A stretch of 25,541 bases of DNA from a virus, in IMG/VR virus record IMGVR_UViG_3300031603_000026, positions 1 through 25,541 of that record. The stretch is one strand, 5' to 3'. Numbering within the stretch: the first letter of the stretch is position 1; every line of letters begins with the position of its first letter. Below, in pieces: positions 1 to 21,815 of this stretch. A program made the position numbers and the translations under genes. Below the pieces are notes generated by a model that saw nothing but the letters and a program-made list of their open reading frames with translations, did not search any database and was not told where the DNA came from.

Positions 1-1
1 T

Positions 2-1249
2 ATATTTCAATCCAATCCCTTCTAATGTTTTACATCTGGATAATGCAACATAAGTCTGACCAGCACTGAAAGCACCACTTCCTAAATCTATATATACTTT
101 ATCATATGTTTTACTTTGTGATTTGTGGATTGTAATTGCATATGCAAGCTTCAATGGATACTGATTGAACTTTCCTTTCTCAATCAACTGAACTCTACCA
201 TCTTTTAAATCGTAGTCTCCTGAAATCCATTCTTCTTTATACATAGTGAATTTAATTCCATCAAGAATTACATCAATTGAAAAGTCAGATAAACCTACAA
301 CAATTCCAATTTGTCCATTATACCAATAAGGACTATTTCGTAATATCATAACTTGAGCACCTATTTTTAATTCTAAGTCAGCTGGCGCTGGATATGAATT
401 AAAAGGAAAATCTCCTGATACTGATGCATAATAATGTTTTGAAGGTTTTTGAATTTTATCAAGTCTTTCTTTATTAATTTTATCAGCTACTTTGTTAGTT
501 GTTGATAGATAAATATAATCAATTCCAAACTTCTCTTCTTTGATTACTCTTTTATTTATGAAATTAAGATCATCCCAAGTCTGTTTTCCAATTCTAATCT
601 TATTGAGGACTGTTGTAAACTCTTTATCATGCTGTCTGTATATCTTAGTTAGTTCTACAATAGTAAATTCACCAATCTCAGGAGCACTGAAAAACCAGGG
701 AGAGTAGAAATTTTCTTTTATATATCTCTCGTCTGGAGAACCTCTTTGCACAATAGGTGGTAATTGAAACAAATCGCCAACAGCGACAATTTTTATTCCA
801 CCAAAAGGTATTTCGGAGTTTCCGGTTAATACTCTTAATTGATAATCGATAGCATCCATAAGATCAGCTCTGACCATAGATATTTCATCTATGATCATCA
901 CATCAATTGTATTTACTACATCTCTGTTCGATGAGACTACGGAATATTTATTAATAATTCCGTGAGCTAATTTGAAGAAGGAATGAATTGTTACGCCTTT
1001 AACATTGACTGCTGCTACTCCAGTTGGAGCAAGAACAACAACATTTTTCTTAGTGTTTGCTTTAAATAAATCTATAAAAGTAGATTTACCTGTTCCTGCG
1101 CTTCCAGAAACAATAACATTTTTCTGTGAGAACTCAGCAAGTAATAATGCCTTCCTAAGTTCTTCATTTACTTCGTAATCTAAGTTCTTGAAGTTTTTTT
1201 CATATTCTGCTATAATTATCTTAAGTTCGTCTCTTGCTGTTTTATCCAT
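2..1249 (-). CDS. Pif1-like SF1B DNA helicase (3' end outside window)
   Basis: ATP-dependent 5'-3' DNA helicase of the Pif1/RecD-like SF1B group, probably acting in replication or recombination. I translated 416 codons up to the left edge. Visible motifs: Walker A GSAGTGKST (about residues 49-57), LAPTGVAA (motif Ia), MIIDEISM (Walker B), VGDLFQLPP (motif III) and, near the edge, AYAITIHKSQ and YVALSRCKTLEGIGL (motifs V-VI typical of Pif1 proteins). Motif VI is already complete, so little is probably missing. The ATG at 1249 has no Shine-Dalgarno site and lies five bases after the -10 box of a consensus promoter, so its own mRNA should be leaderless; no other in-frame ATG precedes Walker A. 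It is the last gene of the DnaE-led operon. T4 Dda is a functional analogue, but the C-terminal motifs look more like Pif1. The helicase call is secure; the exact role is inference. Confidence 0.93.
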   Translation of the reverse strand, partial: MDKTARDELKIIIAEYEKNFKNLDYEVNEELRKALLLAEFSQKNVIVSGSAGTGKSTFIDLFKANTKKNVVVLAPTGVAAVNVKGVTIHSFFKLAHGIINKYSVVSSNRDVVNTIDVMIIDEISMVRADLMDAIDYQLRVLTGNSEIPFGGIKIVAVGDLFQLPPIVQRGSPDERYIKENFYSPWFFSAPEIGEFTIVELTKIYRQHDKEFTTVLNKIRIGKQTWDDLNFINKRVIKEEKFGIDYIYLSTTNKVADKINKERLDKIQKPSKHYYASVSGDFPFNSYPAPADLELKIGAQVMILRNSPYWYNGQIGIVVGLSDFSIDVILDGIKFTMYKEEWISGDYDLKDGRVQLIEKGKFNQYPLKLAYAITIHKSQSKTYDKVYIDLGSGAFSAGQTYVALSRCKTLEGIGLKY

Positions 1250-1254
1250 AATTA

Positions 1255-1283
1255 ATTATAACAAATTATTCTTTTTATGTCAA
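1255..1283 (-). promoter_or_regulatory. Consensus sigma70 promoter, family member A (leaderless)
   Basis: TTGACA (1283-1278), 17-base spacer, TATAAT (1260-1255) on the minus strand. The spacer shares AAAAAGAATAAT with five other promoters here; this copy has one substitution (TTGACAT instead of TTGACAA). The predicted start of transcription falls at about 1249-1247, on the helicase ATG. The stop codon of the upstream zinc-ribbon gene (TGA, 1282-1280) lies inside the -35 box. Confidence 0.9.
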
Positions 1284-1438
1284 GAAGAAAACTGAGTAAA
1301 TTCTTTTGATTTAACCTCTACCATTTTCTGGCAATGAGGGCAAAAGCCCATAGGAATTTGATTTTCCATTTTTGTATCAAATCTTGCTTTGAAAACTTCA
1401 TCACATTCTTTACAAGTTACTTCCATTTCTTTTTCCAT
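1280..1438 (-). CDS. Small zinc-ribbon protein (52 aa)
   Basis: Not recognised as a named family. The 52-residue product has two CxxC knuckles, CKEC (residues 9-12) and CPHC (33-36), about 20 residues apart, as expected for a single Zn-ribbon that could contact nucleic acid or a protein partner. The start ATG (1438-1436) overlaps the stop of the preceding 85-aa gene as TAATG, which suggests translational coupling. Its own stop TGA is part of the -35 hexamer of the helicase promoter. It belongs to the DnaE-GGQ-helicase operon. The short length and the overlaps on both sides support it being a real gene. Confidence 0.8.
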   Translation of the reverse strand: MEKEMEVTCKECDEVFKARFDTKMENQIPMGFCPHCQKMVEVKSKEFTQFSS

Positions 1439-1695
1439 TATACTACCTTCACCCATTTTTTTACTGTAATTGTTTCTTCGATCTGATGATATTCTTCAGA
1501 ACTTTGAGAATAGAATTCATTATCCTGCATTTCAGTTAAACCTTCTTCCCAAACAAGCTCATAATATTTATCATCTTCCATCTTAACAATAGTAGAATTA
1601 GATCTGGACCATCTGCGGTTTTCACCTTCTTCAGTTTCTACATCCCATTCAAATACTGCTTCTTTTACTTGATCTGCTGTAAAATGTCTTGTCAT
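1438..1695 (-). CDS. Hypothetical acidic protein (85 aa)
   Basis: Unrecognised. An 85-residue, Glu-rich soluble protein with many aromatic residues (several Trp and Tyr) and a basic end, KKWVKVV. There is no signal peptide, membrane segment or metal-binding cluster. The ATG at 1695 has a good Shine-Dalgarno site (AGGAG followed by ATATA), the same arrangement used by the GGQ gene just upstream. It sits 8 bases after that gene and overlaps the zinc-ribbon gene by TAATG. Position in the operon suggests an early accessory function; nothing in the sequence defines it. Confidence 0.75.
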   Translation of the reverse strand: MTRHFTADQVKEAVFEWDVETEEGENRRWSRSNSTIVKMEDDKYYELVWEEGLTEMQDNEFYSQSSEEYHQIEETITVKKWVKVV

Positions 1696-1703
1696 TATAT
1701 CTC

Positions 1704-2030
1704 CTAAAAATATTCTATTTGTATATTTTCTTCTCTCATTTCTTCATCTACTCTTTTATTAACTTCTTCTACATCTAAGTCCATTTCAAATATCTTTCTA
1801 TTTAACCATATTTTAAACTTAGGATTAGAGGTTAAACCTGTAAAAGCTTCTCTTTGATTAGCTACCTGAGATCTATTTGACTGCCCAGTTCCTATTATAC
1901 CTGTTTCATTATGTTTGATTCGACAGCAGTTTTGGTGTTTATTTCTATATTGACCTCCTGCTCCTGTACCTGAAAACCAAGTAAGAGTAAAGTCCTTTTT
2001 AGTAATTGAAAATAATAATTCCTTTCCCAT
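1704..2030 (-). CDS. GGQ release-factor-like protein (peptidyl-tRNA hydrolysis domain)
   Basis: A 108-residue stand-alone catalytic domain of class I release factors. The GGQ tripeptide (residues 25-27) sits in FSGTGAGGQYRNK, followed by RIKHNETGI and the SNRSQVANQREA segment, all hallmarks of the RF-1 fold that hydrolyses peptidyl-tRNA in the ribosomal A site. It lacks the codon-recognition domain of RF1/RF2. In length it resembles ArfB/YaeJ or PrfH-type proteins, but its C terminus (about residues 80-108) is acidic, not the basic tail that ArfB uses to enter the mRNA channel. The ATG overlaps the preceding stop (TAATG), with AGGAG upstream. It may rescue stalled ribosomes or alter termination during infection; that role is inference. 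Confidence 0.88.
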   Translation of the reverse strand: MGKELLFSITKKDFTLTWFSGTGAGGQYRNKHQNCCRIKHNETGIIGTGQSNRSQVANQREAFTGLTSNPKFKIWLNRKIFEMDLDVEEVNKRVDEEMREENIQIEYF

Positions 2031-2311
2031 TATATCTCCTTAATTCTTTCTTCAAATACATGCCATACTAATGCTCCACCTGCCATTTGTGCAGTTCCTA
2101 CAAACTTAAAAGTATCTATGTTTTTAGGAGTTGAGTTTCCAGTTCCATAGATATGAAACGTCCTTGGAAATAATGGTTCATCAATATTAACTAATGCCCA
2201 TATACACACTTTCTCATACTGCACGTCTACAGATAAAGTTCTGTAGATTATTGGCATGAAAATCTCTTGAGTATCTACAATGTCTAATTCATACTTGTAT
2301 ATCTTTTTCAC
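2030..2311 (-). CDS. Conserved phage protein, DUF7352-like (93 aa)
   Basis: A 93-residue protein with the pattern of a small phage family that I recognise as DUF7352-like: an N-terminal KYELDI strand, a central ALVNIDEPLFPRTFHIYGTG, and the C-terminal signature FVGTAQMAGGALVWHVFE. Function unknown; the fold is probably a small beta-rich domain. The start is GTG at 2311, overlapping the previous gene's stop (GTG/TGA share bases), consistent with coupling. It precedes the GGQ gene with a TAATG overlap. Family assignment is from memory of the C-terminal motif and could be checked by profile search. Confidence 0.8.
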   Translation of the reverse strand: MKKIYKYELDIVDTQEIFMPIIYRTLSVDVQYEKVCIWALVNIDEPLFPRTFHIYGTGNSTPKNIDTFKFVGTAQMAGGALVWHVFEERIKEI

Positions 2312-2478
2312 ATGGCCTCCTTCATAAATTCCTTCAAATCATCTCTAAGAATTTCTTTTCCCATAGAACCAATATAACATTGATGCTCAGGATTATTCAT
2401 CCACGCATCAATAAATTCAAACATTAAATCTTGACCTTCTATTATTCCATCACAATAAAGGTCACCTATCATTCCCAT
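2308..2478 (-). CDS. Small hypothetical protein following DnaE fragment (56 aa)
   Basis: Unrecognised 56-residue product starting MGMIGDLYCDG and ending KEFMKEAM. Its ATG (2478-2476) overlaps the stop of the DnaE fragment as TAATG, and its TGA stop overlaps the GTG of the next gene by four bases, so it is held in a tightly coupled string. It shows no similarity by eye to the missing palm, fingers or OB parts of DnaE, so it is not simply the continuation of the polymerase in another frame. There is one GGAG-like site near its end, serving the following gene. Confidence 0.7.
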   Translation of the reverse strand: MGMIGDLYCDGIIEGQDLMFEFIDAWMNNPEHQCYIGSMGKEILRDDLKEFMKEAM

Positions 2479-3767
2479 TATACAGCCTCCATAAAAAAAT
2501 CGAATACTACATCACTACTTCTCTCGTCCGATAAAAATCTTTGGAACAAAAGCCCGTAATGTATAGGATCCAATGTCGTTATATCTAAAGCATATAAAAC
2601 TAAAGATGAAGCTCCAGATCCTCTTGCGGGACCTCTCATTATCTCTTCACGTTTCGCAAAATTAAAAACATCCCACAATATCATTATATAAGATGAGAAA
2701 CCTTTTCTTAATAAGATCTCTATTTCCTTTAATAGTCTCTTTTTATATTCTGTTGTAAGATCAGCCCATTCTTTTACTCCCATTTTTTCAACTAACCCTT
2801 TAATACTTTCAACTACTAATAATTGATCGTCATTGTCTGTAAGGGAAGGAAGCAGCAGCCTATTTCTTTCTTTGAATTTATAACTACATTTATCACTAAT
2901 TAGTTGAGAGTTCTCACACCACTCGTTAATCTCTGTTTCCGTGTAATTATAGCCCCATTCTTTATTAAATCTATGAAAGTCAGGAATGTCCATATAAAAT
3001 AAATTCTTTCCTTCTAATTCCCAATCTAATTCATCTAAAGTAACACCACGACTAATTGCAATTGCTAATGTTTGAATTTTATCTAATCCTGGCTTTGCAT
3101 AATGAACATCACCTGTTAATACTATAGGAACATTATATTTCTTTGCTAATGATATAATCCATTCATTAACAGAGATTTGCCCTTCTTCAAAGTTATCAAT
3201 TCCATGAGTAATTTCATTCAATTGAATTTCAGCATAGAAATCATCACCAAAATTATCAACAAATAGCTTAAATAGTTTCTCTGATTTTTCAATTTCTTCA
3301 TCTCTATATAATCTTGCAAATGGAGAACCCATACAAGCAGTTCCTACAATCAATCCTTCTTTATGCTCAAACAGTTCTTTAATTGTTATTTGATTTCTAT
3401 AATAAAAATGTTTTTCATCTGAGTTTGATTTATAGTTTAGTTTTAATAAATTCTTATATCCAACTTCATTCTTCGCTAAGAGAACAAGATGCATATTTTT
3501 ATTTCTTTGCCTCTTTTGTTTTCCTTTTACTTCCTTATATCTCTCAAGTTCAAACTCAACATATGCTTCAACTCCAAAGATAGATTTTATTCCATACTTT
3601 TTACAAGCTAAATAATGCTCATAATGACCATTCATTTTTCCATGATCTGTAATTGCTAATGAAGGATGCCCCATTTCCTTTGCTAATTGTGCATATTGGT
3701 CTGGAGATCCTATTCCGTCGAGGGTAGATCCCAAATGTGAATGGAGATGGAGGTGATTATAACTCAA
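2478..3767 (-). CDS. dnaE: DNA polymerase III alpha N-terminal part (PHP domain plus start of palm), truncated or split
   Basis: 429 residues matching the N-terminal third of bacterial DnaE. The PHP domain (about 1-270) shows HLHLHS (residues 5-10), TLDG, ITDHG, GVEAYV, MHLVLLAKNEVGYKNL, an ACMG motif and TGDVHY, so the metal-binding set looks complete and proofreading or phosphoesterase activity is possible. The palm begins with GPARGSGASS (379-388) and ALDITTLDPIHYGLLFQRFL. The protein then ends ...SSDVVFDFFMEAV, at the place where DnaE normally has PDFDxDF with two catalytic aspartates; one of these appears replaced by Val. The rest of the palm, fingers, beta-binding and OB regions are absent here. 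Start is TTG with AAGGAG six bases upstream. Either it pairs with a second polypeptide encoded elsewhere or it is a nuclease-only remnant. Confidence 0.9.
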   Translation of the reverse strand: MSYNHLHLHSHLGSTLDGIGSPDQYAQLAKEMGHPSLAITDHGKMNGHYEHYLACKKYGIKSIFGVEAYVEFELERYKEVKGKQKRQRNKNMHLVLLAKNEVGYKNLLKLNYKSNSDEKHFYYRNQITIKELFEHKEGLIVGTACMGSPFARLYRDEEIEKSEKLFKLFVDNFGDDFYAEIQLNEITHGIDNFEEGQISVNEWIISLAKKYNVPIVLTGDVHYAKPGLDKIQTLAIAISRGVTLDELDWELEGKNLFYMDIPDFHRFNKEWGYNYTETEINEWCENSQLISDKCSYKFKERNRLLLPSLTDNDDQLLVVESIKGLVEKMGVKEWADLTTEYKKRLLKEIEILLRKGFSSYIMILWDVFNFAKREEIMRGPARGSGASSLVLYALDITTLDPIHYGLLFQRFLSDERSSDVVFDFFMEAV

Positions 3768-3784
3768 ATTAAACTCCTTAAATA

Positions 3785-3813
3785 ATTATACAATATTATT
3801 CTTTTTTTGTCAA
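3785..3813 (-). promoter_or_regulatory. Consensus sigma70 promoter, family member B (dnaE operon)
   Basis: TTGACA (3813-3808), 17-base spacer beginning AAAAAAGAATAAT, TATAAT (3790-3785), minus strand. Transcription should begin at about 3778, just at the AAGGAG of the dnaE TTG start, giving a leader of only about 11 bases. It lies in the divergent gap shared with the plus-strand gene at 3875. Confidence 0.92.
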
Positions 3814-3874
3814 GTAAGAAGATTAGGAAATCAATTCGTAAAGGTAAAATAAACAGATAACGATGGAGAACTAA

Positions 3875-5341
3875 ATGGTATCTTTTACAGAATATATTAA
3901 GAATAAAGAAATAAATGAAAAATTTGAGACTGAAACACTATCTTCTGCTATTTCTAAAGTAGCTGATGCAAAGAAGTTTAAGAAAGATATAGAAGTTAGA
4001 AAACAAGCTACAGCTTTGCTTAAGGATGCTGAAAAAGGAAAAGTAGAAAAAGTATATAGAAAAGCCGCTGAAGGTTCTCTTAAACCTACTGATCTTGAAG
4101 ATGAAGGGCTTAAAGATATAGCATTAGCAATATCAGTTTTAACATCTCATAAGAAAAATGACGCTGAAAAAGCTGTCTTGAAAACACATAAAATAGAGCC
4201 TCCAGAAGGAACAACATCTTTTGCTAATTCAACTCTTTCATCTACCCTAAATAAAAAAGCAATGAAGACAGTTTTGTTAGCAGCTAAGTCAGCTAAAACA
4301 GAACCTGAAACTTCGGAAACAGAACCTGAAACTTCGGAAACAGAACCTGAAACTTCAGAAAAAGGTGCTAAAACAGAACCTGAAACTTCGGAAAAAGGTG
4401 CTGAAACAGATGAAGTTGAGCCTAAAGAAACTCCTGCTCAAGTTAAATCAAGAGTAGATAAGAAGATAGATACAACTTCTAAGATTATAGATGCAGGAAA
4501 CACTAAAACACTAGATGGACCTGACGCATCTAAACCTAATAATCCTCAATTTTTCATTAATTCTTTTAAAGCAGATAAAGAAACAGCGATGACTGGTTTT
4601 CAAGAACGTATAGATAAATTTGATGAAGGGAAACAAGCAAAAGGAGCTAGCGTTAAAAATGAGTTTTCAGCAAAAGCAGACAAGATTCTTACAACTATTG
4701 AAACATTAGAAAGAAAATGGAAAGATACTACACTCCCAAGTAAAAAAGATAAATTCTTAAATTTAATCAAAAAGGAAACAAGAACTTTTGATAATTTAAA
4801 AAATACATATGAAGGCAATATAAAAAAAGCTGGTAGCGCAAAAGCGCTTGAAAGAACAGGAATGAGATTAAAGAAAACTGGAGAAAATTTAAAAGGTGCT
4901 TTAGACAAAGTTAAAAAAAGTGAAGTTGCAAAAGATGCAAAAAAAGTATTAGATACAGGAAAAGAGCTTGCAGGAAAAGCCGGTGCAGTAGCAAAAGAAA
5001 CTACAGTAAAAGTTCTTAATAATGCTGAACTAAACACAAATAAAAAATTTATTCAAGCTTATACACCTGCTGATTTCCCCGCTTATTCAAAAGCTGTGTT
5101 AAATAAAGATACAAAAGTTCAACAAGAGTTAATCGATAAAGCAAAAGCGGCTAAAGCAAAAGCAGGATCTGAAAAAGAAATAAAAAAATCAGAAACTAAA
5201 CAAGAAATTGAAGCACGAAAATTAAATAACCAGAAGAATAAAATACTAAAGAAAAAAACTAAAACTCTTACTCCGCCACCTGCCAATACAATGACAACTA
5301 AAACTCAAGAAAAGGTTAATAAAAATATTAAAACAGCATAG
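3875..5341 (+). CDS. Lys/Glu/Ala-rich protein with TEPETSE repeats (488 aa), possible virion or internal protein
   Basis: Unrecognised. A 488-residue, highly charged protein, largely helical or disordered by composition, without Cys or membrane segments. The N terminus reads MVSFTEYIKNKEINE, which in outline recalls the short acidic capsid-targeting leaders of T4 internal proteins (F/Y-x-E-F/Y-I). Residues about 142-175 hold four TEPETSE units with KGA spacers. The C-terminal half is rich in KKxG, KAKA and TKT stretches, suitable for binding DNA. ATG at 3875 is preceded by GGAG. It is alone on the plus strand, facing early minus-strand operons, and ends at a two-way terminator. A structural or DNA-packing role is inference; no domain is recognised. 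Confidence 0.8.
   Translation: MVSFTEYIKNKEINEKFETETLSSAISKVADAKKFKKDIEVRKQATALLKDAEKGKVEKVYRKAAEGSLKPTDLEDEGLKDIALAISVLTSHKKNDAEKAVLKTHKIEPPEGTTSFANSTLSSTLNKKAMKTVLLAAKSAKTEPETSETEPETSETEPETSEKGAKTEPETSEKGAETDEVEPKETPAQVKSRVDKKIDTTSKIIDAGNTKTLDGPDASKPNNPQFFINSFKADKETAMTGFQERIDKFDEGKQAKGASVKNEFSAKADKILTTIETLERKWKDTTLPSKKDKFLNLIKKETRTFDNLKNTYEGNIKKAGSAKALERTGMRLKKTGENLKGALDKVKKSEVAKDAKKVLDTGKELAGKAGAVAKETTVKVLNNAELNTNKKFIQAYTPADFPAYSKAVLNKDTKVQQELIDKAKAAKAKAGSEKEIKKSETKQEIEARKLNNQKNKILKKKTKTLTPPPANTMTTKTQEKVNKNIKTA
4298..4405 (+). repeat. In-frame 21-bp tandem repeats coding TEPETSE
   Basis: Units at 4298-4318, 4319-4339 and 4340-4360 are nearly identical (ACAGAACCTGAAACTTCGGA plus A; the third has TCA for TCG). 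A 12-base spacer coding KGAK (4361-4372), a fourth unit at 4373-4393 and another 12-base spacer coding KGAE (4394-4405) follow. So there is a 21-bp unit and a 33-bp compound unit. Repeats stay in frame and probably vary in number between relatives by slippage. Confidence 0.95.
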
Positions 5342-9692: not shown

Positions 9693-9709
9693 TTTTTTCT
9701 CCTTAATGA

Positions 9710-9738
9710 ATTATATCATATTATTCTTTTTTTGTCAA
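9710..9738 (-). promoter_or_regulatory. Consensus sigma70 promoter, family member C (gp47-gp46 operon)
   Basis: TTGACA (9738-9733), 17-base spacer beginning AAAAAAGAATAAT, TATAAT (9715-9710), minus strand. Downstream, ATTAAGGAG lies right at the expected transcript start, much as at the dnaE promoter. The last codons of the upstream 90-aa gene (VDKKRII and TGA) are read from the -35 box and spacer. Confidence 0.92.
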
Positions 9739-9988
9739 CTGTATAGAAGGGTGGTTTTTCTTGCATGAACCTTTCACAAAATGGTATGTAATTAAAGTCA
9801 ACTTTTTTATTATTTTTATTCTCTTCATATTCAACAAATATACGAACCTGTCTTTCTAATTCCTTTAGGAGATAGTCTTTATTCCAAGCAGTTGCTTCTT
9901 CAATTATCATATCTGCATATCTCTGGTTATATTGACTTTTATTTTCAAGAAAATAAACAAACTTTTTAACCATAGTATTAAATCTCAT
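9716..9988 (-). CDS. Hypothetical protein (90 aa) ending inside promoter
   Basis: Unrecognised 90-residue, probably helical protein: charged, with many Glu, Lys and Tyr. I choose ATG at 9988 because GGGAG lies six bases upstream; an in-frame TTG four codons earlier has no such site. It overlaps the 3' end of the HNH gene by 11 bases. The final seven residues, VDKKRII, and the stop are encoded by the promoter at 9710-9738, so the promoter either was inserted into the gene's end or evolved with it. No function can be assigned. Confidence 0.7.
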   Translation of the reverse strand: MRFNTMVKKFVYFLENKSQYNQRYADMIIEEATAWNKDYLLKELERQVRIFVEYEENKNNKKVDFNYIPFCERFMQEKPPFYTVDKKRII

Positions 9989-11212: not shown

Positions 11213-12676
11213 TTACCCCTTAGAATTATCTAAGGGGTTTTTTAATTCAAACTTAAAATTTCCACAGTCCCATACTCTATCATATCCATTATTAATCATA
11301 TTTTCCCATTCAGTTATTGATGGATTATATTCTTTTAATATTGATTTTAATTTATGTTTTTGAAATTTTACTCTATTTAATCTTTCTATTTTGCTTCTAT
11401 AAAAATAAAAATAACTTTGCTTAGTATCTTCAAGTTTCTTAAAACCATTGTTCTCATAGACTTTACCAGTAAAATATCTTTTATCTGAATAAGTTATTAT
11501 ATCTCCAGAATAATTATTAGTAAAATATTTAAGCAGTTTAGAAAATCCACCAATAACTACTGTATTCTTCTTACTTACAAAACGATGTATTTCCCATTTA
11601 TAATTCTTATTATATCTTGAACTTCCAAAGGTCAATAAAGAAACTAATTCATCGCTATAAAATAATCCAATATTAATTGAACTATTAGATGATCCTTGCA
11701 GGTGATTATTTTCTAAAAAAACGTTTCTATCTTTTTTATTTATTTCTAATATTTTCGTCTTTCTTGCGAATATTTTATCATCAACTATTCCAAGTTTTAT
11801 TCTTATAATTGATTTTACTATTTCTCTTTTATTATCCCATTCATCTTCAAAAATATGTATAAGTTTTATTCCATTATTATTACAAGTTTCAGTTTTATTT
11901 AGGTGATAATCTTTATTTTTTCCATTTAACTCGCTATGCCAATATAAACCATTAAATTCTATTGCAACTTTTTTTTCTGGTATGTATATATCTATTTCTT
12001 TACCGTTAAGTATATTCCTATCATTTTCTATTATATCAAGATGATATATAGATCTTATAAAGTCTATGACTTCATTTTCTTTTATTGATGATGTATTAGG
12101 AACACATACTGGGCATCTAACTTTTTTAGAATGAATATTATCTTCAAATTCTGTATTACATTTTTTGCATTTAAATTTATAATAAATACTTTTATTATCT
12201 ATTCTCATTCCTTTATATTCTTCTAAGAATATAACTTTTTGTTCTTCAACTCTTTTATTTGCAATATTAGAAAATTTATCAAGTCTTGATGAAGTTCTTT
12301 TTTTTAAAACTTCTTTATTTTGCTGAACATATTCGACTCCATATTTTTTAAGATTAGTCTGTTTAGTTTTTTCTTTTATAATATTGTTTTGGGCTGGAGC
12401 TTTTTTACCGTATCTGTTTATATTTGTATTTTCAGTTTTACATTTTCTACATAGAAAGGCTTCATTTTCTATTCTATCTTTTATTCCTCTACGACTTGAA
12501 ACTGTTACGTTTGTACCACACTCTTTACAGTTGAACTCAAGGATACTATTAAAACTATATCCTTTTATAAGCTTTATTTTTTCTATATTAGTATAAGTTT
12601 TTTTATCTTTTATTAATTTCACTATTGAATAACCTTTAGGGATATTTGTTAGGCTACCCAAATAGGGGCCTAACAA
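11213..12676 (-). CDS. Large Vsr-type (PD-(D/E)XK) homing endonuclease, Hef-like (about 470-487 aa)
   Basis: A mobile endonuclease with zinc knuckles CKEC/CRKC and CKKC/CPVC, an intervening DNA-binding repeat (KYGVEYVQQNKEVLKKRTSS), then a nuclease core: EIDIYIPEKKVAIEFNGLYWHSE (split at about residues 230-252), where D, E and the WHS motif resemble the Vsr fold. The C-terminal domain (about 300-480) has EIHRFVSKKNTVVIGGFSKLLKY and ITYSDKRY, common in phage Hef-like endonucleases. The longest frame starts at TTG (12676) within a large hairpin; a GTG at 12622 with AAAGG upstream would give 469 aa and may be the true start. The last seven codons are read from the tail-tube terminator on the opposite strand. 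Confidence 0.88.
   Translation of the reverse strand: MLGPYLGSLTNIPKGYSIVKLIKDKKTYTNIEKIKLIKGYSFNSILEFNCKECGTNVTVSSRRGIKDRIENEAFLCRKCKTENTNINRYGKKAPAQNNIIKEKTKQTNLKKYGVEYVQQNKEVLKKRTSSRLDKFSNIANKRVEEQKVIFLEEYKGMRIDNKSIYYKFKCKKCNTEFEDNIHSKKVRCPVCVPNTSSIKENEVIDFIRSIYHLDIIENDRNILNGKEIDIYIPEKKVAIEFNGLYWHSELNGKNKDYHLNKTETCNNNGIKLIHIFEDEWDNKREIVKSIIRIKLGIVDDKIFARKTKILEINKKDRNVFLENNHLQGSSNSSINIGLFYSDELVSLLTFGSSRYNKNYKWEIHRFVSKKNTVVIGGFSKLLKYFTNNYSGDIITYSDKRYFTGKVYENNGFKKLEDTKQSYFYFYRSKIERLNRVKFQKHKLKSILKEYNPSITEWENMINNGYDRVWDCGNFKFELKNPLDNSKG
11215..11243 (+). terminator. Intrinsic terminator of the tail tube gene
   Basis: Perfect 10-bp stem ACCCCTTAGA (11215-11224) with TCTAAGGGGT (11229-11238), loop ATTA, followed by a T run. 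It begins 14 bases after the gp19 stop. The same bases code the end of the endonuclease gene on the minus strand. Confidence 0.95.
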
Positions 12677-13173: not shown

Positions 13174-13234
13174 AACAAACCTCCGTAGAGCATTTTATTT
13201 AGTTCCTTCATGCGAAGCAAACTTACTTATTTTA

Positions 13235-13263
13235 ATTATACAACATTATTCTTTTTTTGTCAA
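13235..13263 (-). promoter_or_regulatory. Consensus sigma70 promoter, family member D (hsp20)
   Basis: TTGACA (13263-13258), 17-base spacer beginning AAAAAAGAATAAT, TATAAT (13240-13235), minus strand. It starts three bases after the stop of the 255-aa gene. The expected leader to the hsp20 ATG is about 55 bases, longer than at members A, B, C and F. Confidence 0.92.
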
Positions 13264-17389: not shown

Positions 17390-17707
17390 TTAACTGTAAA
17401 CAGCCCAAACAGATTTCGCAGGAATAATTCCTTTCATTGTAGGGTTAAGCGGATCTGCTACATTTTCAACTTTAAACTGTTGAATATCGTGTTCGTTAAA
17501 AACTATACTATCTCCAACTTCAAATCCACAAGTTTCAAGATCAACATTATTACCAATTGTTTCTACAATTGCTTCATGAACTGGTTGTTTATCTGTTTCT
17601 CCATCAATTAATTCAATACCACCAGAAGTAACTCTTTTCTTCTTTTCAATTTCATCAAATCTAAGTATAATCATTTCACCAATTGCTCTTAATACTTTCT
17701 TTGCCAT
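17390..17707 (-). CDS. 31: GroES/gp31-type co-chaperonin
   Basis: 105-residue Cpn10-fold protein that should form the heptameric lid of host GroEL, replacing GroES as T4 gp31 does for capsid protein folding. The N terminus, MAKKVLRAIGEMIILRFDE, and KKRVTSGGIELIDGET (the mobile-loop region with GGI) match GroES; VGDSIVFNEHDIQQF is the conserved C-terminal barrel segment. T4 gp31 is 111 aa. ATG at 17707 has GAGGAG nearby, inside the end of the upstream endonuclease, with which it overlaps by 19 bases. Its place between recA and uvsW is unlike T4 gene order. Confidence 0.92.
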   Translation of the reverse strand: MAKKVLRAIGEMIILRFDEIEKKKRVTSGGIELIDGETDKQPVHEAIVETIGNNVDLETCGFEVGDSIVFNEHDIQQFKVENVADPLNPTMKGIIPAKSVWAVYS

Positions 17708-18588
17708 TTTATCTCCTCTAATTTTTCTTTTATATCTTCATTATATTTTATTCTTAATAATTTTATTCCATTGTTTTTACAATAAATAGTTTTAATTTCA
17801 TCTCTTTTTCTTACTTTTTTAAACTCTTCTATTCCTCCGAAAAATTTTGTAGGTTTATAATGCTGTTTACCATCATACTCAATACATAAATTATAATCTG
17901 GCAAATAAAAGTCAAAATATAAAAGTCGCAAGTTTTTACACTTAGGAAATGTTTTTTGCTGTTCAAACAAAGTTTCATTTTCTATTAACATTTTCTTTAT
18001 TCGCTGCTCTCCACGACTGCTATTAAAACAGTTTGGACATCCATGACCATTTAAATGGCTATATGGTTTTTGCTCAAACTTCCCATGCTTTCTACAGTTA
18101 ATTATAACTTTTGCCTGTGCATTGTTATAGTCAACCAAACTATAATCATAAGTATTTCCATGAACATCTATAGCATCTTCTATAAACTCTTCTGTAGTTT
18201 TTTTTGAAGTTCCATAACATTTTGGACACCCTCTATTACTTAAATGGTCATTAGGTTTTTGTTCAAATCTCCCATGCTTTCTACAGTTAATTATAACTTT
18301 TGTATGATTATTTTTATAGTCAACTAAATTGTAATCATATTTATTTCCATGAATATTTATAGCATCTTCTATAAATATTTCTGTAGTTTTCTTTTTATTC
18401 CCATAACATTTTGGGCATCTATTTTTCTTTAAATGGTCTTTAGGTCTTTGCTCAAACTCTCCATGTTTACTACAGATAATTTTCACTTTTGTATAATTAT
18501 TCTTATAGTCAACCAAACTATAAGAATAAGTATTTCCATGAATATTTATAGCATCTTCTATAAACTCTTCTGTAGTTTTTCTTGCCAC
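17689..18588 (-). CDS. Homing endonuclease with three zinc-ribbon modules and Vsr-like nuclease (299 aa)
   Basis: Three tandem modules of about 63 residues (4-65, 67-128, 130-190), each TTEEFIEDAINIHGNxYxYS...CxKHG...CPKC; Cys at 39/58/61, 102/121/124 and 165/184/187 with a His beside the first. Such modules are common in phage proteins annotated DUF723 (family name from memory). The C-terminal nuclease has FDFYLPDYNLCIEYDGKQHY (226-243) and NNGIKLLRIKYNED. It begins with GTG sharing a base with the recA stop (TAGTG) and overlaps groES, so it sits in the recA-groES junction without harming either. It is a close paralogue of the gene at 20858-21742. Modules also repeat at DNA level. Confidence 0.88.
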   Translation of the reverse strand: MARKTTEEFIEDAINIHGNTYSYSLVDYKNNYTKVKIICSKHGEFEQRPKDHLKKNRCPKCYGNKKKTTEIFIEDAINIHGNKYDYNLVDYKNNHTKVIINCRKHGRFEQKPNDHLSNRGCPKCYGTSKKTTEEFIEDAIDVHGNTYDYSLVDYNNAQAKVIINCRKHGKFEQKPYSHLNGHGCPNCFNSSRGEQRIKKMLIENETLFEQQKTFPKCKNLRLLYFDFYLPDYNLCIEYDGKQHYKPTKFFGGIEEFKKVRKRDEIKTIYCKNNGIKLLRIKYNEDIKEKLEEIKWQRKY

Positions 18589-20841: not shown

Positions 20842-20846
20842 GATTT

Positions 20847-20875
20847 ATTATATCAGATTATTCTTTTTTTGTCAA
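20847..20875 (-). promoter_or_regulatory. Consensus sigma70 promoter, family member E (gp32-recA operon)
   Basis: TTGACA (20875-20870), 17-base spacer beginning AAAAAAGAATAAT, TATAAT (20852-20847), minus strand. The end of the upstream endonuclease gene (LTKKE and its TAA stop) is read straight from the -35 box and spacer. Confidence 0.92.
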
Positions 20876-21742
20876 GCAATTACTCAACTTACAATTTATA
20901 TCTTCATTATAAGCTATCCTTAACAACTTAATATTATTATCATTACAATATTTATTTTTAATTGCATCATTGAATTGTGTTTTATACAATTGATCAATTC
21001 CACCAAAATACTCAATAGGTTGAAAATGTTGCATCCCATCATATTCAATACAAATATTTCTTTTAGGTAAGTAAAAATCAAACCTTAATTTATTTATTTT
21101 AAGGAAGCTTTTTTCCCTTTCATAATAAAAATTTTTTTCAATTAAAAACTTTTCAATTTTCATTTCTCCTTTACTAATATTACATAGTCTACATCCACTT
21201 CCTCTTAAATGACTTTGTGGAACTTGTAAAAATTCTCCATGAACAGGACAGATGATTTTTATCTTAGTCCTATAGTTTATATATTTAGATAAAGAATAAT
21301 CATATTTATTTCCATGAATTTTAATTGCTCTTTCTATAAATCTTTTAACTGATAATTTATTATTTCCATAACATTTTGAACACTTTTGCCCTAATAAATG
21401 ATTATTAGCCTTTTGCAAAAAACTACCATGAATAGGACAGACTATTTCTACTTTAGTTCGTGAATTAATATAATTTACTTTCGAATAATCATATTCATTT
21501 CCATGCATATTAATCGCATTTAAAATAAAATCTTCTGTTGTCTTTTTATTATTCCCATAACACTTAGAGCACCCTCTTTTCATTAAATGTTTATTAGGCT
21601 TTTGCAAAAAACTACCATGAATAGGACATATTATTTCTATTTTAGTTTGTGAATTAATATAATTAACTTTCGAATAATCATACTTATTTCCATGAATATT
21701 TATTGCGTCAATAATAAATTGTTCAGTAGTTTTTCTTTCCAT
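20858..21742 (-). CDS. Homing endonuclease with three zinc-ribbon modules and Vsr-like nuclease (294 aa), leaderless
   Basis: Same architecture as the 17689-18588 gene: three modules TTEQFIIDAINIHGNKYDYS...CPIHG...CSKC, then a nuclease with FDFYLPKRNICIEYDGMQHF and NDNNIKLLRIAYNED. I set the start at ATG 21742 (MERKTTEQF) because it aligns with MARKTTEEF of the paralogue. A longer frame from ATG 21781 would translate the promoter itself. The ATG lies six bases after TATAAT, so the mRNA should be leaderless. Its stop codon is inside the promoter of the ssDNA-binding gene. It lies between the gp26-type gene and gp32. Confidence 0.88.
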   Translation of the reverse strand: MERKTTEQFIIDAINIHGNKYDYSKVNYINSQTKIEIICPIHGSFLQKPNKHLMKRGCSKCYGNNKKTTEDFILNAINMHGNEYDYSKVNYINSRTKVEIVCPIHGSFLQKANNHLLGQKCSKCYGNNKLSVKRFIERAIKIHGNKYDYSLSKYINYRTKIKIICPVHGEFLQVPQSHLRGSGCRLCNISKGEMKIEKFLIEKNFYYEREKSFLKINKLRFDFYLPKRNICIEYDGMQHFQPIEYFGGIDQLYKTQFNDAIKNKYCNDNNIKLLRIAYNEDINCKLSNCLTKKE

Positions 21743-21748
21743 ATCTTC

Positions 21749-21777
21749 ATTATACAACATTATTCTTTTTTTGTCAA
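21749..21777 (-). promoter_or_regulatory. Consensus sigma70 promoter, family member F (leaderless endonuclease)
   Basis: TTGACA (21777-21772), 17-base spacer beginning AAAAAAGAATAAT, TATAAT (21754-21749), minus strand. It follows four bases after the U tract of a terminator, so stem-loop and early promoter form one unit, like the PeSL elements described in T4 relatives. The start of transcription falls on the endonuclease ATG. Confidence 0.92.
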
Positions 21778-21780
21778 TCA

Positions 21781-21815
21781 TAAAAAATCAACCATATTAT
21801 TTATGGTTGATTTTA
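21781..21815 (-). terminator. Intrinsic terminator after the gp26-type gene and its extension
   Basis: 11-bp stem AATCAACCATA (21786-21796) with TATGGTTGATT (21802-21812), five-base loop; on the minus strand it ends in a six-T run. The stop codon of the +1-frame extension (21799-21797) falls in the loop, which ties that frame to the transcript end. Confidence 0.92.

What the first reader, a model, noticed from the sequence alone, without database searches (positions are those of the whole stretch)
2478..3767. DnaE gene ends at the first catalytic palm motif
The PHP domain looks intact, but the protein stops right after the stretch that should hold PDFDxDF, here SSDVVFDFF, with one aspartate position occupied by Val. 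The remaining two thirds of DnaE is not within 2.4 kb downstream. It may be a split polymerase whose halves associate, a natural split at a mobile-element hotspot, or a PHP nuclease freed from polymerase. DnaE is unusual in a phage with T4 recombination genes, where a B-family polymerase is expected.
Basis: partly seen in the sequence, partly recalled or inferred. Interest (0 to 1): 0.7.

Follow-up and report, generated by a model that had tools for sequence, protein, structure and literature searches.

The report
Phage replication polymerase in three genes
This phage gene is not a broken DNA-copying enzyme but the first piece of one that related phages encode as three separate genes, cut through the enzyme's active site, so the pieces most likely have to find each other and assemble.

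Summary
The ORF is real: window 3767-2478 (-), 429 aa, PHP domain plus the start of the DnaE palm. It is neither decayed nor a sequencing error: four relatives (74-80% identity) end at the same codon. SSDVVFDFF is not a damaged catalytic motif but a short, probably flexible tail. The true DxDxD motif lies on a second gene, M (about 295 aa), 1.6-3.0 kb downstream in those four; fingers and HHH lie on a third, C. N and M are separate in 8 of 10 records showing both (4-nt overlap, two genes apart, a Dda-type helicase between, or about 85 kb apart) and fused in two with identical N parts. M and C are separate in 10 of 10. In the two loci checked, N, M and C each have a copy of the same promoter-like motif. 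No intein lies at either break, and no B- or A-family polymerase was found where searched. M begins with about 90 aa resembling a degenerate second copy of the palm's nucleotide-binding module, so the cut falls between two copies. Best reading: a three-subunit, non-covalently assembled replicative DnaE. The window ends just before M is expected, so M and C were not seen in this phage itself.

The parts
2478..3767 (-). dnaE-N: 429-aa first subunit of the split DnaE (PHP plus nucleotide-binding half of the palm), start TTG
3222..3755 (-). PHP domain (residues 5-182); the nine positions that line up with the metal ligands of M. tuberculosis DnaE1 (ligand list recalled) are H9 H11 D17 H42 E67 H93 C145 D220 H222, all invariant in the 5 aligned N parts (the last two lie just downstream of this span)
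2607..2636 (-). RGPARGSGAS: glycine-rich (GS) loop of the palm, kept intact on N
   Evidence: role recalled
2481..2531 (-). C-terminal tail (residues 413-429, SDERSSDVVFDFFMEAV): conserved but predicted flexible, not the catalytic motif
3784..3813 (-). promoter-like motif TTGACA-N-AAAAAGAATAAT-N4-TATAATT directly before dnaE-N (6 in window, 0 in any of 100 shuffles)
2..1249 (-). Dda-like helicase, 416 aa, runs off the left end; in L002 the M gene starts 44 nt after this gene's stop, so M is expected just beyond base 1
1254..1283 (-). same promoter-like motif before the helicase gene

Best explanation
The ORF is subunit N of a replicative C-family DNA polymerase (DnaE) that this group of T4-like phages encodes as three genes, N (PHP and nucleotide-binding half of the palm), M (metal-binding half of the palm with all three catalytic Asp, plus thumb) and C (fingers, HHH). 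The three proteins are made separately and assemble without a covalent join, so the active site is shared by N and M. The N/M cut falls between the original nucleotide-binding module (end of N) and a degenerate second copy of it (start of M), which may be what made the cut tolerable. Shown: the gene arrangement, its conservation, the motif positions, the absence of inteins at the breaks. Inferred: assembly, activity, and that the window phage has M and C just beyond the fragment.
For: N ends at the same codon in L002-L005. PF07733 is divided at profile column 99 (N) / 95-103 (M) in the four closest relatives. M holds IDxDxD and KYDILG, C holds DNA_pol3_finger and HHH_6. N/M separate in 8 of 10 records showing both (L002, L003, L004, L005, L032, L087, L200, L204), fused in L031 and L033. 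M/C separate in 10 of 10. In L204's record M is on the other strand about 85 kb from N and C, which excludes any cis joining there. The fused L031 chain shows N tail then M head in one polypeptide, a natural control for the geometry; its model matches Pol III alpha over 687 columns, E 3.2e-31. In L002 and L005 the same promoter-like motif lies 15-47 nt before N, M and C each. Tail, M head and M core are under purifying selection (pN/pS 0.38, 0.55, 0.23). No DNA_pol_B in 10 family records and no DNA_pol_A in 5. Module duplication: profile of the insertion in single-chain relatives and profile of the M head both hit the same 80 of 929 DnaE columns, just upstream of the cut; 0 of 200 column shuffles reach either score. 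Precedent: split gp43A/43B of Aeromonas phage 25 co-purify and are active (PMC2988022, passages).
Against: M and C were not seen for the window phage (fragment). No binding or activity data. All records are metagenomic and none is rated 90% complete or more, so a missing B-family polymerase is not proof. HHalign's own probabilities for the duplication are modest (52% insertion, 6% M head), and M head against the insertion directly is not significant (2-10%; shuffles 0, 1, 9, 47, 45 of 200 for five heads). The M head is under weaker constraint than the core. The fused model is of moderate quality (pLDDT 71.8, pTM 0.53).
Confidence: 0.8

Rival explanations
1. The halves are joined later: by protein trans-splicing (split intein) or by trans-splicing of a divided group I or II intron, giving one DnaE chain.
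For: Relatives do carry intein halves with an HNH gene between them inside M (L004) and C (L005), and a group I intron inside M of L003 and L005, so such joins are used elsewhere in the same enzyme.
Against: No Intein_splicing match in G000, G001, G002 or G013, which are split all the same. N ends and M begins in protein sequence that is conserved, not in intron or intein sequence. Rfam finds nothing in window 1-4200 at E 0.1. L031 encodes N tail and M head as one chain, so they belong to the mature protein.
Confidence: 0.05
2. N is a PHP nuclease freed from the polymerase and works alone; the rest of DnaE is dispensable.
For: All nine candidate metal ligands are kept; N is its own gene with its own promoter-like motif. 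No DnaQ-type (RNase_T) match in four records.
Against: The palm half with the GS loop is as conserved as in polymerases; M and C with full catalytic motifs are present in every family record that extends far enough (10 of 10). N/M fusion in L031/L033.
Confidence: 0.06
3. The gene is a decaying or mis-assembled remnant (frameshift at 2478-2530) and the phage relies on a host or other polymerase.
For: Only the first third of DnaE lies in the fragment.
Against: Same end in four relatives at 74-80% identity with synonymous divergence near 0.67; pN/pS 0.24; the downstream frames hold unrelated, conserved genes.
Confidence: 0.02
4. The approx. 90-aa head of M is an unrelated insertion rather than a duplicated palm module; the split then simply used an insertion loop.
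For: HHalign probability for the head is only 6% and direct head-insertion similarity is weak.
Against: Both profiles pick the same 80-column module, 0 of 200 shuffles each; helix order in the fused model repeats (331-346, 350-365, 376-379, 381-385 against 424-441, 445-463, 468-474, 482-486).
Confidence: 0.3

Closest known systems
Split minimal Pol III alpha of group 2.2 jumbo phages (PMC7824862, passages read)
   Same: C-family palm encoded by separate genes, cut between nucleotide-binding and metal-binding halves; proposed to reassemble. CBB_328 of phage CBB (KU574722) ends at the same PF07733 column, 98.
   Different: There it lacks PHP and the other Pol III domains and accompanies a B-family polymerase; here PHP, fingers and HHH are kept, a second break (M/C) exists, and no B-family polymerase was found. 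I did not find the second CBB unit convincingly.
gp43A/gp43B split B-family polymerase of Aeromonas phages 25 and 44RR (PMC2988022, passages)
   Same: T4-like phage replicative polymerase in two chains that associate and are active.
   Different: B family, two pieces, cut by a homing endonuclease gene or an untranslated spacer; here C family, three pieces, with replication and other phage genes between.
Cyanobacterial split-intein DnaE (recalled; mentioned in PMC3919608 passages)
   Same: DnaE encoded by two genes.
   Different: There a split intein joins the halves into one chain; here no intein at the breaks.
Single-chain phage DnaE with palm insertion (L034-L058 group)
   Same: Insertion at the same site, before the DxDxD motif, in 20 of the 25 loci L034-L058.
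   Different: One chain of about 1,060-1,089 aa; about 30% identity to the window protein.

Membership tests
C-family DNA polymerase (DnaE type) | PHP domain followed by Pol beta-like palm | tested here: met
C-family DNA polymerase (DnaE type) | three catalytic Asp and fingers/HHH, as a set encoded by the genome | tested here: inconclusive
   met in relatives on M and C; not visible for the window phage
C-family DNA polymerase (DnaE type) | polymerase activity | not testable with these tools
   -
Group 2.2 split minimal Pol III alpha | cut between nucleotide-binding and metal-binding palm halves | tested here: met
Group 2.2 split minimal Pol III alpha | minimal form without PHP and other Pol III domains | tested here: not met
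Group 2.2 split minimal Pol III alpha | accompanied by a B-family polymerase | tested here: not met
   0 of 10 family records (records incomplete)
Split-intein DnaE | intein halves at the break | tested here: not met
   no match in G000, G001, G002, G013; matches in G003, G004, G012, G014 lie inside N, M or C or elsewhere
Split T4-like polymerase (gp43A/B kind) | B-family polymerase | tested here: not met

The most novel reading that the evidence does not exclude
A complete replicative DnaE divided into three separately expressed subunits, with one active site built from two of them, made possible because the palm's nucleotide-binding module was first duplicated and the chain was then cut between the copies: fission by duplication, with living intermediates (fused, overlapping by 4 nt, separated, relocated about 85 kb away).
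Probability: 0.55. Interest if true: 0.75.

Novelty: new variant of a known kind. Interest (0 to 1): 0.62.

Why it matters
If right, a main replication polymerase can work with its catalytic site shared between two free-standing proteins, and a third carrying the fingers. The series fused / overlapping / separated / relocated lets gene fission of an essential enzyme be studied step by step, and the duplicated module offers a testable reason why the cut is tolerated. It also gives a PHP-bearing, apparently self-sufficient counterpart to the minimal split Pol III of jumbo phages, and natural split sites for building controllable polymerases.

Tried and rejected
Sequencing error or decay: rejected by the shared end in L002-L005. 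Intein or intron at the N/M break: none found. Stop-codon bypass: not needed, since the promoter-like motif lies before each piece in L002 and L005 and M is about 85 kb away in L204's record. A reading of the L003/L005 gap in M as translational bypass was dropped when Rfam scored it as a group I intron (65.1 and 60.5 bits, cut-off 50); the default Rfam scan had missed it. The idea that the split arose once, or that L031 re-fused, could not be settled: the splits are paraphyletic on the tree, but one clade is not rejected (AU p 0.082). PHROG families 13169 and 12219 suggested other phages cut at the same place; the annotated phages I opened (Gordonia WhoseManz, Bacillus Blastoid, Salmonella SSU5, Pseudomonas Nican01, Bacteroides SJC03) have one long ORF instead, so that lead stayed open. 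A bacterial-genome scan found no close relative (2 weak loci). The PF07733 match at 53 kb in CBB crosses stops and was not used.

Full report
The observation. Window 2478-3767 (-) encodes 429 aa with a PHP domain and the first part of the Pol III alpha palm (Pfam; PHROG 405 DNA polymerase 1.5e-115; T. aquaticus, M. tuberculosis and E. coli Pol III alpha in the PDB by sequence). The record is a 25,541-base viral fragment. Nothing downstream in it continues DnaE; the next large ORF is a Dda-like helicase that runs off the left end.

The end is natural. A scan of viral contigs gave four close relatives, L002-L005, whose N proteins end at the same residue 429. Synonymous sites differ at about 0.67 per site while pN/pS is 0.24 overall and 0.38 in the last 12 codons. 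A frameshift or fresh decay is therefore excluded.

Where the rest is. PF07733 in the four relatives' records is divided: one match ends at profile column 99, the next begins at 95-103. The second gene, M, is 295 aa in L002 and holds IDVDSDF and KYDILG. The third, C, carries fingers and HHH_6; an OB domain was not reported by Pfam. Between N and M lie small genes and the Dda-like helicase, between M and C small genes and usually a 125-134-aa (152 in L032) protein that resembles a late sigma factor (my reading; PHROGs gave no match for the L002 copy). In the AlphaFold model of the window protein (pLDDT 86.9, pTM 0.81) residues 421-429 are unstructured; the model matches Pol III alpha structures, best E 1.9e-28.

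More relatives. Twelve records hold N or M of this family: window, L002-L005, L030 (cut inside N), L031, L032, L033, L087, L200, L204. N end and M start are both visible in ten: separate in eight, fused into one 712-aa ORF in L031 and L033, whose N parts are identical. In L087 the N stop and M start overlap (ATGA). In L032 two genes lie between. In L200 the gap is about 4 kb. In L204's 208-kb record N and C stand together (197.5-201.0 kb, minus strand) and M is at 113.4-114.3 kb on the plus strand. M and C are separate in all ten where both are visible (for L003 only the first 48 aa of C). For the window, M is predicted just outside: L002's M starts 44 nt after the helicase stop, and the window helicase lacks only about 23 codons.

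Each piece looks like a gene of its own. A 30-base promoter-like motif, TTGACA-N-AAAAAGAATAAT-N4-TATAATT, occurs 6 times in the window and in none of 100 shuffles; one copy lies directly before dnaE-N. In L002 copies stand at 9956, 11459, 12809 and 14497, before N (10001), helicase (11493), M (12856) and C (14531); in L005 at 9955, 12112, 14200 and 16944, before N, helicase, M and C.

Mobile elements. They invade this enzyme at several other places: a group I intron between SGASGG and IDIDTDW in M of L003 and L005, intein halves with an HNH gene between in M of L004 and C of L005, cis inteins in C of G003 and L031 and in N of L087. But four split or N-bearing records, G000, G001, G002 and G013, have no intein match at all, and the N tail and M head are conserved protein. 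Mobile elements therefore do not explain the joints today, though they may have started the break.

The duplicated module. A group of single-chain phage DnaE (20 of the 25 loci L034-L058 met my two motif patterns and were used; 5 were dropped) has a 105-120-residue stretch between FERFLNP and PDVDTD, where other DnaE have none. M begins with about 85-95 residues at the same point. Compared with a 42-sequence DnaE profile of 929 columns without such a stretch, the insertion profile hits columns 321-401 (score 37.6) and the M-head profile (9 sequences, catalytic motif removed) hits 317-400 (26.1); the best of 200 column shuffles reached 25.1 and 23.2. These columns are the nucleotide-binding palm module directly before the cut. 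The fused L031 model repeats the same order of helices. Against this: HHalign probabilities are 52% and 6%, and the head and the insertion are not significantly alike directly. I take duplication as likely, not proven, and a common origin of head and insertion as open.

History. On a tree of N parts the family is one clade (100/99) and L031 (fused) pairs with L087 (split). One split and one re-fusion, or two splits, both need two changes; holding all split rows together is not rejected (AU p 0.082).

Polymerase setting. No DNA_pol_B match in G000-G004, G012-G016 or the outgroup G008 and no DNA_pol_A in G000-G004; no RNase_T exonuclease in four records. With the nine candidate PHP ligands intact (ligand list recalled), proofreading by PHP is plausible. 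The window also has gp46/47-, UvsX-, UvsW- and gp32-like genes and a T4 baseplate protein.

Known work. Passages of PMC7824862 describe a minimal Pol III alpha split into two proteins in group 2.2 jumbo phages beside a B-family polymerase; CBB_328 of phage CBB ends at the same column. Passages of PMC2988022 describe split phage genes that reassemble, including gp43A/43B. PMC10580990 (passages) reports split DNA polymerases in MEP401-type phages. Passages of PMC3919608, PMC9123017, PMC12926913 and PMC6207643 do not describe this arrangement. My paper searches listed no three-gene DnaE; that library is open-access only, so absence in print is not shown.

Verdict. A real, conserved three-gene DnaE; function by non-covalent assembly is inferred (0.8). 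It is a new variant of a known kind.

Noticed in passing
window 1254-1283, 3784-3813, 9709-9738, 13234-13263, 20846-20875, 21748-21777 (all -): A 30-base promoter-like motif with a fixed spacer (TTGACA-N-AAAAAGAATAAT-N4-TATAATT), 6 copies here and none in 100 shuffles; same motif 6 times each in L002 and L005.
   Followed up: partly
L005 14517-14702; L003 14188-14374: Very small group I intron (about 190-200 nt), nearly identical in both phages, inserted inside the catalytic palm motif of M; missed by the default Rfam filters.
   Followed up: partly
L004 12880-15074; L005 16978-19788: Intein halves separated by a free-standing HNH gene inside M and C, like 'fractured genes' with split inteins.
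   Followed up: partly
window 11213-12676, 17689-18588, 20858-21781 (-): Endonuclease-like genes between core phage genes: the first two match homing/HNH endonuclease PHROGs, the third has only weak Pfam matches (DUF723, DUF4379).
   Followed up: no
L064, L065, L067, L071, L072, L073: Another group of phage DnaE ORFs (522-634 aa) ends at the same place as M, with the fingers part further downstream: an M/C-type break without the palm insertion.
   Followed up: partly
window 1704-2030 (-): Stand-alone RF-1-type release factor domain protein (PF00472) between dnaE-N and the helicase.
   Followed up: no
window 3875-5341 (+): Divergent 488-aa lysine-rich protein with TEPETSE repeats, no Pfam match, with similarly placed counterparts beside N in L002, L004 and L005.
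   Followed up: no
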